Virus record (IMG/VR): IMGVR_UViG_3300046808_000295
Coordinates: 1-34,932 of that record
Length of the DNA stretch: 34,932 nucleotides
Strand: one strand, 5' to 3'
Origin: a virus
This document shows, piece after piece, positions 14,942-26,448 of this stretch (its first letter is position 1; each line of letters starts with the position of its first letter). The translations under genes and the position numbers were made by a program. Below the pieces are notes generated by a model, which had not been told where the DNA came from, did no database searches, and saw only the letters and a program-made list of their open reading frames with translations.

Positions 14942-15154
14942 ATGGCACAACAAACGGCAACAGAATGGTTAATGTTAGAAATGCTAAAACCAGATATGTA
15001 TAGGATATGGCCTACATTATTAGAGAGAGCCAAGTATATGGAGAAGGAGCAAATAATGAATGCTTGGTTGAATGGTGATAATGATAGTATGTATGACCCA
15101 AAAGAATTAGACAAACAAGCAGAACAATATTACAACGAAACCTATAACAAATAA
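14942..15154 (+). CDS. MAQQTA...YYNETYNK family protein, copy A
   Basis: A 70-residue acidic protein sharing its beginning (MAQQTA, then WL at residues 9-10), a central AKYMEKEQIMNAW helix and its end (YYNETYNK) with the next gene. It is half of a tandem duplicate. I have seen this arrangement in Bacteroidota phages but know of no function. A 138-base gap before it (14804-14941) is AT-rich and shows no clear promoter match. Confidence 0.65.
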   Translation: MAQQTATEWLMLEMLKPDMYRIWPTLLERAKYMEKEQIMNAWLNGDNDSMYDPKELDKQAEQYYNETYNK

Positions 15155-15156
15155 CT

Positions 15157-15369
15157 ATGGCACAACAAACGGCAGTTGATTGGCTTGTAAAAGAGCTAAA
15201 ACTTGAAGGGTATGACTATACAGTAGAACAAGCAAGGGCTATGGAGAGGCAACAACTCGCTAACTCTTGGGACAAGGCTTGTGACCAATACATTTACCGT
15301 GATGGGAACTTAGTTAAGGTATGGCAAGATTTTGATAAATATTATAACGAAACATATAACAAGTCATAA
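15157..15369 (+). CDS. MAQQTA...YYNETYNK family protein, copy B
   Basis: A 70-residue paralogue of the preceding gene, separated by 2 bases. The start MAQQTAVDWLVKELKLEGYD, central ARAMERQQLANSW and end DKYYNETYNKS match copy A, while the middle differs, so the duplication is old. The first 16 bases of both genes are identical at DNA level. Its function is unknown. Small acidic early proteins of this type often bind host proteins, but nothing here proves that. Confidence 0.65.
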   Translation: MAQQTAVDWLVKELKLEGYDYTVEQARAMERQQLANSWDKACDQYIYRDGNLVKVWQDFDKYYNETYNKS

Positions 15370-15371
15370 AA

Positions 15372-24399: not shown

Positions 24400-26448
24400 A
24401 TGGACCAAACACTAAAGACTAACAAAGTATTCGAGATACTAACTGATTCGGACAAGAGGATAACGGTGATGCAGGGAGGTTCACGTTGTTTTACTGGTGA
24501 AGTTCTTGTACATACGGAAAATGGTCATAAGCCTATAAGAGACATTAACAAAGGTGAACGAGTGTATTGCATTGACAATAATTACAAAGCAGTACTTAGA
24601 CCCGTTGTTGATAAGTTTATATACAAGGGTGACCAACATAGACATAATGTAGTTACATTTGTATTAAGTGACAATAAAAAAATCACTTGTACTTATGATC
24701 ATAAACTACTACAAAGAGATGGATATGTTGCAGCATTTGACATTGCCATCGGAATGTTGGGTTGCGGTTCGTGGGACAAACGAGCGTTACCTTATCAGCA
24801 ACCTTGGTCGACTTGTAACGATGAGGTACAAGAACAAGTCTGGCGTGGATGGGGTGAGAGTTATGAGACCAGCGAAGGATGCCAATGGGTATTTGAGGAC
24901 AATGATTCTCTTGAACGGGCAATACAGAACTGTGAAGATGCATCGGTTGGTAGCGGAACATTTCATATTGAACGAGAATCAGAAACCTCAAGTAAACCAC
25001 ATCAACAACCAAAGAGACGACAATCGAGCAGTGAATTTGGAGTGGGTGACATTCAGAGAGAATTTGGACCATATGATAGCGCAGGGGAGACAAACTTTCA
25101 ACAATGGAGAGAAGAATGGGAAGAGTATCCTTACTTCAGATATTGTAAGGTCGATAAGGCAGGAATACAAGCCTTATGTGGTAATGATGAAGGATTTATC
25201 GGTGAAGTATGGGGTGAGCAAAGCAACGATAAAAGATATATTGACGGGCAGGAGTTGGGGCAGCGTATCTTAGAAATAAATGACGTAAGTGAAATTTTGT
25301 TTCACACTACTGCTGAGAGTGTATATGATATTGAGGTAGAGGAGTTTCATAATTACTTTGTTACTGATAAAAACTATATTTCTCATAACTCTGGCAAAAC
25401 TTACAACATTCTGATTTGGTTTATTGTAAAGCTACTCCAAGAGAACGGCAAGACATTAACAATCGTAAGACAATCGCTTCCTTCTATCAAGGGTACAGTT
25501 TTAAGGGACTTTATCGACATACTTGGTAGACTTGGTATATATTCAGAGGACAACCACAACAAGACTGACCAAATTTATTCTTTGAATGGTAATATAATCG
25601 AGTTTGTATCGGCAGATCAACCTCAGAAGATAAGAGGTCGTGCAAGGCAGTATTTATTTTGCAATGAGGCGAACGAATTGACTTATGAGGCTTGGATGCA
25701 GTTGATAATGCGTACGGAAGGTAAGATAGTGATAGACTATAACCCATCGGACTTATCGAGCTGGATTTATGACTCTGTGATACCGAGAGATGATGCGGAC
25801 TTCCACATCACTACGTTCAGAGACAATCCGTTCTTGCCGAAGGAGTTGGTGTTGGAGCTTGAGAGGTTAAAGGATGCAGACCCGAACTATTGGACCATCT
25901 ACGGATTAGGTGAGAGAGGACTAAGCCAAGACTTGATATACTCACATTGGAAAACAACTGAGCAAATGCCCGAGGAAGGTGAGGTGGTGTATGGATTGGA
26001 CTTTGGGTTTAATGTGCCAACTGCACTGGTTAAGGTTGTATTCGTTGAGAACATGGCATACTGCCAAGAAATGATATACGAGGCGAAGATGACAACGGAG
26101 GATGTGATAGATAGACTGAAGCAGTTGGGGATGACAAACTATGACGAGATTTATTGTGATGCGGCAGAGCCAAAGACGATTGAGGCTATGGTGAGAGCAG
26201 GGTTTAATGCTAAACCTGCGAACAAGGATGTGACGGAGGGAATAAGGACAGTAAAAAGCGTACCATTGTTTATTCACCAAGATAGTGTAAATTTGATTAA
26301 AGAAATTAAAAACTATCGTTGGAAAACGGACAGAAATGGTAACAAACTTGATGCACCTGTGAAGTTTAACGATCACATTCTCGATGCATTACGTTATGGC
26401 ATATTTAGTAAATTAACAATCCCAAGTGTGACTTGGGGTGCAATATAA
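24400..26448 (+). CDS. terL: Terminase large subunit with intein
   Basis: A 682-residue precursor. Removing the intein (residues 30-330) leaves a 381-residue TerL with an ATPase (Walker A GGSR/SGKT restored across the splice junction, Walker B-like FCNEAN near 418-424) and an RNase H-like nuclease (Asp534 in DFGF, Asp587 in CDAAEP, Asp658 and Asp662 in DHILDALRYG). It belongs to the PBSX/Terminase_3-like group that packages DNA into heads. Splicing is needed for ATPase activity because the intein splits the P-loop. The start at 24400 gives TLKTNKVFEILTDSDKRITV directly before the Walker strand. The gene follows a 315-base non-coding region and is followed by the portal gene after 5 bases. Confidence 0.9.
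   Translation: MDQTLKTNKVFEILTDSDKRITVMQGGSRCFTGEVLVHTENGHKPIRDINKGERVYCIDNNYKAVLRPVVDKFIYKGDQHRHNVVTFVLSDNKKITCTYDHKLLQRDGYVAAFDIAIGMLGCGSWDKRALPYQQPWSTCNDEVQEQVWRGWGESYETSEGCQWVFEDNDSLERAIQNCEDASVGSGTFHIERESETSSKPHQQPKRRQSSSEFGVGDIQREFGPYDSAGETNFQQWREEWEEYPYFRYCKVDKAGIQALCGNDEGFIGEVWGEQSNDKRYIDGQELGQRILEINDVSEILFHTTAESVYDIEVEEFHNYFVTDKNYISHNSGKTYNILIWFIVKLLQENGKTLTIVRQSLPSIKGTVLRDFIDILGRLGIYSEDNHNKTDQIYSLNGNIIEFVSADQPQKIRGRARQYLFCNEANELTYEAWMQLIMRTEGKIVIDYNPSDLSSWIYDSVIPRDDADFHITTFRDNPFLPKELVLELERLKDADPNYWTIYGLGERGLSQDLIYSHWKTTEQMPEEGEVVYGLDFGFNVPTALVKVVFVENMAYCQEMIYEAKMTTEDVIDRLKQLGMTNYDEIYCDAAEPKTIEAMVRAGFNAKPANKDVTEGIRTVKSVPLFIHQDSVNLIKEIKNYRWKTDRNGNKLDAPVKFNDHILDALRYGIFSKLTIPSVTWGAI
24487..25389 (+). 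mobile_element. Intein in TerL Walker A motif, carrying a nested HNH gene
   Basis: A 301-residue intein (codons 30-330). It starts at Cys (CFTGEVLVHTENGHKPIRDI, block A), has a block B-like TCTYDHKLLQRDG, and ends with blocks F and G (VYDIEVEEFHNYFVTDKNYI then SHN), followed by Ser of the extein as nucleophile. These are the catalytic residues of class 1 splicing. The centre (about residues 124-291) has no intein or endonuclease character in this frame. It coincides with an HNH gene in the +1 frame. Without that insert the splicing part is about 134 residues, a normal mini-intein. Confidence 0.9.
24719..25273 (+). CDS. HNH homing endonuclease (NUMOD4-HNH) nested in the intein, +1 frame
   Basis: A homing endonuclease gene of about 184 residues from ATG 24719 (alternatives 24668 and 24725). 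Domains in order are NUMOD4 (CWVAVRGTNERYLISNLGRL), an HNH nuclease (KMHRLVAEHFILNENQKPQV then NHINNQRDDNRAVNLEWVTF with the His-Asn-His pattern), and a C-terminal helix-turn-helix (DLSVKYGVSKATIKDILTG) for DNA binding. It would cut intein-free terL alleles and promote copying. AAAGAG before 24725 could serve as ribosome site. The overlap with the terL frame is complete. Confidence 0.85.
   Translation: MDMLQHLTLPSECWVAVRGTNERYLISNLGRLVTMRYKNKSGVDGVRVMRPAKDANGYLRTMILLNGQYRTVKMHRLVAEHFILNENQKPQVNHINNQRDDNRAVNLEWVTFRENLDHMIAQGRQTFNNGEKNGKSILTSDIVRSIRQEYKPYVVMMKDLSVKYGVSKATIKDILTGRSWGSVS

What the first reader, a model, noticed from the sequence alone, without database searches (positions are those of the whole stretch)
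24487..25389. HNH homing endonuclease gene nested out of frame inside a TerL intein whose own frame stays open
Seen in sequence: a complete class 1 intein (Cys at start, His-Asn at end, Ser after) interrupts the Walker A motif of TerL. From about 24758 to 25273 the +1 frame encodes a clear NUMOD4-HNH-HTH endonuclease, while the intein frame has about 167 codons without stop but with no recognisable domain (rich in Gln, Glu, Trp). A chance open frame of this length in AT-rich DNA is unlikely. Known: inteins normally carry the endonuclease in the same frame as one fused protein. Inference: a free-standing homing gene invaded a mini-intein of about 134 residues, was tolerated because the other frame remained open, and now makes a dual-coding mobile element.
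Basis: partly seen in the sequence, partly recalled or inferred. Interest (0 to 1): 0.87.

Follow-up and report, generated by a model that had tools for sequence, protein, structure and literature searches.

The report
Inteins hiding out-of-frame homing genes
A self-splicing protein insert (intein) in a phage DNA-packaging gene carries its probable spreading enzyme as a second gene written over it in another reading frame, and the same hidden layout turns up in dozens of related phage genes where it had gone unnoticed.

Summary
A 301-residue class 1 intein interrupts TerL exactly at the Walker A codons (24487-25389). A NUMOD4-HNH endonuclease gene (ATG 24695 to TAG 25273) lies in its +1 frame, and the intein frame stays open. 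This is neither chance nor a one-off. Ten related inteins keep both frames with no indel. Recoding the endonuclease synonymously gives 10-21 stops in the intein frame; none are observed. The endonuclease frame is under purifying selection (omega about 0.12). The overlapped intein stretch is not conserved as protein; it is only kept stop-free. So this is a linker kept open, not two selected proteins. The inteins are scattered on the TerL tree, with empty sites in 98%-identical exteins. The same layout recurs in six more divergent TerL Walker A inteins. A second TerL intein site, with an unrelated HNH mostly in the +2 frame, shows it in 67 of 79 loci plus named phages (TJE1, LS06-2018-MD07, Highwayman); no in-frame fusions were found. 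Free-standing relatives of both enzymes flank terL, and some inteins are split around the HNH gene. Published precedent found: only the ShiLan out-of-frame HNH insertion, which is not an intein. One relevant preprint could not be read. Splicing, translation and cleavage are untested.

The parts
24400..26448 (+). terL (large terminase) with intein, one open frame of 682 codons
   Evidence: Terminase_3/3C, PBSX-type TerL TIGR01547
24400..24486 (+). TerL N-extein ending ...MQGGSR (first half of Walker A)
   Evidence: intein-free relatives read GGSR-SGKT without interruption
24487..25389 (+). class 1 intein, 301 residues (Cys1 ... His300-Asn301, +1 Ser)
   Evidence: Foldseek hits to solved inteins
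24487..24759 (+). N-terminal Hint half of the intein, including block B T-Y-D-H (24691-24702)
   Evidence: TIGR01445/PF01079; AlphaFold2 pLDDT about 76-89 up to residue 90
24760..25272 (+). overlapped intein linker, intein codons 92-262: open, unconserved, predicted disordered
   Evidence: positional rates, stop avoidance, omega; pLDDT < 50 for residues 102-214 and 224-258
25279..25389 (+). C-terminal Hint half (...VYDIEVEEFHNYFV...ISHN)
   Evidence: TIGR01443; pLDDT about 77-81
24695..25273 (+). nested NUMOD4-HNH endonuclease gene in the +1 frame (192 aa, ATG to TAG); the open frame begins at 24668
24752..24901 (+). NUMOD4 domain of the endonuclease
   Evidence: PF07463, 25.1 bits against cut-off 23.4
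24935..25063 (+). HNH_3 domain of the endonuclease
   Evidence: PF13392, 28.4 bits against cut-off 24.8
24654..24661 (+). TACATTTG, candidate TAnnTTTG promoter element inside the intein, 41 nt upstream of the nested ATG (a lead, unproven)
   Evidence: present at -41 in 10/10 site-a inteins and at -46 in 4/4 site-b inteins; no significant excess in the window and no paired -33 element here
25390..26448 (+). TerL C-extein (SGKT... with ATPase and nuclease parts)

Best explanation
This is a mobile intein that carries its endonuclease the way a mobile intron does: as a separate gene inside it, not as a fused domain. Steps: (1) Ribosomes translate TerL plus intein as one precursor, and the Hint halves splice it out to restore Walker A (inferred from intact splicing motifs). 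(2) The HNH protein is made by separate initiation at the ATG inside block B, in the +1 frame (inferred). (3) The HNH protein cuts intein-free terL at the Walker A codons and the intein is copied in by repair, that is, homing (inferred from scattered distribution, empty sites and relatives). (4) Selection keeps the endonuclease sequence and, in the intein frame, only the absence of stops and the length, so that TerL can still be made (shown by sequence statistics). It most likely arose when a terL-adjacent free-standing HNH gene entered the loop of a small intein sitting in its target site (inferred).
For: Both frames open, 903 nt and zero indels in ten relatives. Stop avoidance: 0 observed against 10-21 expected, P < 5e-5 in each of six lineages; all 44 at-risk junctions in the window avoid T where about 18.5 T are expected. 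Wobble moves to the HNH frame exactly in the overlap; HNH omega 0.12 (0.09-0.20), intein-frame ratio 1.7. Hint halves are constrained (pN/pS 0.44) and modelled confidently, the linker disordered. Scattered distribution: L002 exteins 98.4% identical to empty L077, L012 98.2% to empty L080; L002 and L003 exteins are 96% identical but their inteins only 78% at nucleotide level. Recurrence in divergent TerL, at a second site with another HNH and another frame, and in named phages. Non-nested HNH relatives carry the usual stops in both other frames. A Shine-Dalgarno-like GGAGGG precedes the nested ATG in the Rhodobacteraceae phage. Free-standing relatives lie immediately upstream (site a) or downstream (site b) of terL.
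Against: No experiment shows splicing, translation of the HNH frame, or cleavage. No conserved ribosome-binding site precedes the window's nested ATG. The homing target is inferred. Inteins could also be inherited and lost repeatedly, although 96% versus 78% identities for L002/L003 speak against that. The omega estimates come from my own simplified OLGenie-like counts, with very few SS sites and near-saturated NS sites.
Confidence: 0.85

Rival explanations
1. Programmed frameshifting: the HNH is made as a fusion to TerL plus the N-terminal half of the intein, not from its own start.
For: The HNH frame opens only about 90 nt before its conserved part and overlaps the intein N-half; no Shine-Dalgarno motif at the window's ATG.
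Against: Frame offsets differ between sites (+1 at site a, mostly +2 at site b), so no common slippery event would serve; the ATG is invariant in the ten close relatives and at the equivalent or a neighbouring codon in six divergent ones; one case has a Shine-Dalgarno-like motif.
Confidence: 0.08
2. The ancestor was an ordinary in-frame HNH intein and two compensating indels put the HNH out of frame.
For: The HNH sits where intein endonuclease domains normally sit, between the Hint halves.
Against: No in-frame relative among 82 further HNH-a loci or 79 HNH-b loci; the HNH has its own start and stop; its nearest non-nested relatives are free-standing genes beside terL.
Confidence: 0.04
3. The HNH is not a homing enzyme but a packaging cofactor that works with terminase, as proposed for HK97-type HNH proteins.
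For: Both HNH families are strongly associated with terL; an HNH upstream of terminase acts with it in cos cleavage in HK97 (discussed in PMC10448857).
Against: The presence/absence pattern among near-identical TerL proteins is not expected of a packaging cofactor.
Confidence: 0.08
4. The overlapped intein stretch is itself a functional domain, giving true dual coding of two selected proteins.
For: A few columns (QW..EW, YP) are conserved in the intein frame.
Against: Intein-frame nonsynonymous changes are not depleted (NN/SN 1.7); AlphaFold2 predicts disorder for nearly all of it.
Confidence: 0.04

Closest known systems
[quoted passage not shown] PMC11855218)
   Same: HNH gene out of frame inside a host ORF that stays open; disjunct distribution; described as actively homing
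   Different: No splicing domain was detected there and the authors conclude it is not a known type of intein; ours has complete Hint halves, and sits in a different gene.
Canonical mobile inteins with a nested endonuclease domain (e.g. PI-SceI; PMC6801210 for the conserved insertion site)
   Same: Hint splicing fold with the endonuclease between the two halves
   Different: Here the endonuclease is a separate gene in another frame, not a fused domain
Fractured genes / split inteins with a free-standing endonuclease between the halves (Dassa et al. 2009, from memory; here Lactobacillus phage CL2, L333, L380, L119, L122)
   Same: Same HNH families and, for CL2, L333 and L380, the same TerL site; endonuclease as its own ORF between the intein halves
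   Different: There the intein frame is closed and the halves would have to trans-splice; here one continuous precursor is kept
Mobile group I introns carrying homing endonuclease ORFs
   Same: Endonuclease ORF independent of the host frame inside a self-removing element
   Different: Removal is at protein level; no group I intron is detected
I-HmuI (1u3e), NUMOD4-HNH homing endonuclease
   Same: Only solved-structure relative of the nested protein, E 1e-15
   Different: I-HmuI is intron-encoded (from memory)

Membership tests
Class 1 intein | Cys1, block B TxxH, C-terminal His-Asn, Ser/Thr/Cys at +1 | tested here: met
   invariant in ten relatives
Class 1 intein | Hint fold | tested here: met
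Class 1 intein | autocatalytic splicing | not testable with these tools
   motifs intact only
Canonical endonuclease-bearing intein | endonuclease fused in the intein's own frame | tested here: not met
   HNH in +1 frame
NUMOD4-HNH homing endonuclease (I-HmuI-like) | NUMOD4 and HNH_3 domains above curated cut-offs, I-HmuI similarity | tested here: met
NUMOD4-HNH homing endonuclease (I-HmuI-like) | site-specific cleavage of the element-free allele and homing | not testable with these tools
   only indirect: scattered distribution and empty sites
ShiLan-type insertion (PMC11855218) | out-of-frame HNH with the host frame open | tested here: met
ShiLan-type insertion (PMC11855218) | no splicing domain in the host frame | tested here: not met
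   Hint halves present
Fractured gene / split intein with free-standing endonuclease | intein frame closed, halves in separate ORFs | tested here: not met
   682-codon continuous ORF
Overlapping gene pair with dual protein selection | purifying selection on the HNH frame | tested here: met
   omega 0.12
Overlapping gene pair with dual protein selection | purifying selection on amino acids of the intein frame in the overlap | tested here: not met
   NN/SN 1.7 (1.3-2.2); only stops are avoided

The most novel reading that the evidence does not exclude
Out-of-frame nested endonucleases are a general, overlooked architecture of phage inteins. Homing genes that flank terL enter inteins at their cut site (near the 5' end from upstream, near the 3' end from downstream). 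The nested stage can then lose the open intein frame, which would make it a natural source of split inteins.
Probability: 0.6. Interest if true: 0.83.

Novelty: new variant of a known kind. Interest (0 to 1): 0.74.

Why it matters
It shows that protein-splicing elements can carry their mobility gene without fusing to it, by writing it over a linker that only has to stay open. This breaks an assumption of intein annotation (look for the endonuclease in frame), explains TerL inteins with an apparently meaningless insert, and gives a concrete, testable route from flanking homing genes to mobile inteins and on to split inteins. The overlap statistics separate 'kept open' from 'selected as protein' unusually cleanly, because free-standing homologues of the same gene serve as the control.

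Tried and rejected
Chance open frame: rejected. Assembly error or indels: rejected by ten indel-free relatives. Group I intron or other known RNA element: no Rfam match in the window or in 20 relatives. AlphaFold2 of the HNH protein was uninformative (mean pLDDT 42). An internal promoter TAnnTTTG is conserved at -41/-46, but the codons partly force it, there is no significant excess in the window, and no -33 partner is conserved: kept as a lead only. Synonymous conservation and RNA folding around the ATG were equivocal. Three searches used the wrong frame of the site-b or Clown insert; the site-b ones were repeated (then 59 and 102). The Gosselin et al. 2025 bioRxiv paper on actinobacteriophage inteins with 'non-canonical architecture' is not held, so prior description there cannot be excluded.

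Full report
WHAT IS THERE. The window's terL gene (24400-26448) is one open frame of 682 codons. Terminase domains are split by a 301-residue insert at residues 30-330, between GGSR and SGKT, the two halves of Walker A. The insert has the marks of a class 1 intein: Cys1, block B T-Y-D-H, C-terminal His-Asn, Ser at +1; curated intein N- and C-terminal models both match. In the +1 frame an ORF 24668-25273 matches NUMOD4 and HNH_3 above their cut-offs, and its family profile finds one solved structure, the homing endonuclease I-HmuI. The best start is ATG 24695, which is formed by the block B codons T-[TATG]AT-H and is invariant in ten relatives.

NOT CHANCE. Ten related inteins (the window and nine from IMG/VR), with exteins 83-98% identical to each other, all have exactly 903 nt, no indel, and both frames open. 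Recoding the endonuclease with synonymous codons gives on average 18-21 stops in the intein frame with the phage's codon usage, or 10-14 when each gene's own codons are permuted; none of 20,000 recodings was open in any of six lineages, and observed stops are zero. In the window, 44 of 44 junctions where a T would create a stop avoid it, against about 18.5 T expected; single-coding genes of the window show no such avoidance (229 T in 537 junctions, 231.6 expected). The third frame has its normal 20-28 stops.

WHICH FRAME IS SELECTED. Outside the overlap the third intein codon position varies most; inside it the variable position jumps to intein position 1, which is the wobble position of the HNH frame (0.394/0.203/0.131). 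Counting changes by their effect in both frames gives omega about 0.12 (0.09-0.20) for the HNH and a ratio of 1.7 (1.3-2.2) for the intein frame. So the intein stretch is not conserved as protein; it is only kept open. AlphaFold2 agrees: Hint halves confident, residues 102-258 mostly below 50; Foldseek's best matches are intein and Hint domains. The Hint halves themselves are constrained (pN/pS 0.44).

MOBILITY. Among 77 classifiable TerL genes, 14 have the site-a intein (all 301 residues), 5 the site-b intein (one has both), 59 neither. Filled and empty alleles are neighbours: L002 (filled) and L077 (empty) share 98.4% of extein residues, L012 and L080 98.2%, the window and empty L015 92.9%. 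L002 and L003 exteins are 96% identical while their inteins are 78% identical in DNA, and the L003 intein is as close to that of L012 (77%), whose exteins are only 84% identical. This is the pattern of repeated horizontal gain. Cleavage and homing themselves were not tested.

RECURRENCE. Searching with the HNH profile found six further, much more divergent TerL inteins at the same Walker A site with an HNH in the same +1 frame (L095, L097, L098, L099, L102, L115) and a partial one close to the window's group (L096). In the other 75 of 82 HNH relatives examined the two other frames are closed. Several relatives of the window's TerL also carry a second intein near the 3' end of terL (DH|C...HN|C, 270 residues) with an unrelated HNH in the +2 frame and again an open intein frame. 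A profile of that second HNH family found 79 classifiable loci: 67 lie under an open host frame (61 with the HNH at host +2, 6 at host +1), 12 do not, and none is fused in frame; most of the 67 show intein flanks by eye, a few are less clear. The 12 non-nested ones carry 2-9 and 8-28 stops in the two other frames, as random recoding predicts; about 9 of 75 open frames would be expected by chance there, 63 were seen. This test is weaker than the site-a one, because that frame offset forbids fewer codons. Named phages show it too: Tetrasphaera phage TJE1, Rhodobacteraceae phage LS06-2018-MD07 and Acinetobacter phage Highwayman, annotated simply as terminase. Gordonia phage Clown has an HNH with zinc fingers in the +1 frame of a terminase intein. 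In LS06-2018-MD07 a Shine-Dalgarno-like GGAGGG precedes the nested ATG.

ORIGIN. The nearest free-standing relatives of the site-a HNH sit directly upstream of terL, those of the site-b HNH directly downstream of terL. Site a is near the 5' end of terL, site b near the 3' end, so in both cases the free gene lies next to the intein site. Other relatives sit between the two halves of an interrupted intein: Lactobacillus phage CL2, L333, L380 at site b, and helicase/primase genes in L119 and L122, also at a P-loop. The simplest order is: flanking gene, nested gene in an intein, and in some lines closure of the intein frame. The direction is inferred, not tested by a rooted tree.

EXPRESSION. Independent initiation at 24695 is the most likely route. 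A TAnnTTTG element, the -7 consensus of Bacteroidota promoters (my knowledge), lies at -41 in ten of ten site-a inteins and at -46 in four of four site-b inteins, but it is partly forced by codons and not significantly enriched in the window.

COMPARISON WITH WHAT IS KNOWN. The literature held here contains one close precedent: the ShiLan domain, an out-of-frame HNH insertion in a phage methylase, judged by its authors not to be an intein (PMC11855218). A structural paper states that endonuclease domains in inteins are all inserted at one conserved site (PMC6801210). Searches for out-of-frame endonucleases in inteins found nothing else. The 2025 preprint on actinobacteriophage inteins with non-canonical architecture, cited by the ShiLan paper, is not held and may describe similar cases such as Clown. 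I therefore call it a new variant of a known kind.

Noticed in passing
L110 2118-2260; L113, L118, L150, L238, L239, L240, L282, L289, L298, L303, L304 (terL Walker A): In a related group of terL genes, 11 of 78 carry a roughly 40-42 nt hairpin insert with an immediate or early stop exactly in the Walker A codons (GCT GCT, stop, 9-11 bp GC-rich hairpin, landing GCA/GCT, then GGT GGT GGC AAA); the 40-nt versions also shift frame. Folding energies -14 to -20 kcal/mol against -4 to -8 shuffled, with compensatory changes. It looks like the T4 gene 60 translational bypass; an HNH-a relative lies directly upstream in 5 of the 11 and in none of the 67 intact genes (T4 background PMC5009743).
   Followed up: partly
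L106, L111, L125, L139 (terL Walker A): Small 1-5 nt frame-breaking inserts at the same Walker A codons downstream of a free-standing HNH-a relative; recoding or assembly error not distinguished.
   Followed up: no
L119 1166-3948 and L122 2071-3924: Primase-helicase and DnaB-like genes split at a P-loop: intein N-half ORF, HNH-a relative, intein C-half ORF (fractured genes).
   Followed up: partly
L214 (Lactobacillus phage CL2) 506-2771: terL interrupted at site b: the N-half intein ends in a stop, an HNH ORF follows, and the C-half intein with the TerL C-terminus lies in an unannotated third ORF.
   Followed up: partly
L215 (Gordonia phage Clown) 1817-4576: Terminase intein with an HNH plus zinc-finger ORF in the +1 frame, annotated only as terminase.
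   Followed up: partly
L219 1492-2415 (Staphylococcus phage IME1318_01): A NUMOD4-HNH domain is fused in frame to the N-terminus of a dUTPase.
   Followed up: no
window 24654-24661: TACATTTG inside the intein, conserved 41 nt upstream of the nested start; possible internal promoter.
   Followed up: partly
window 14942-15154 and 15158-15370: Two adjacent small ORFs share the start ATGGCACAACAAACGGCA, apparently tandem paralogues.
   Followed up: no
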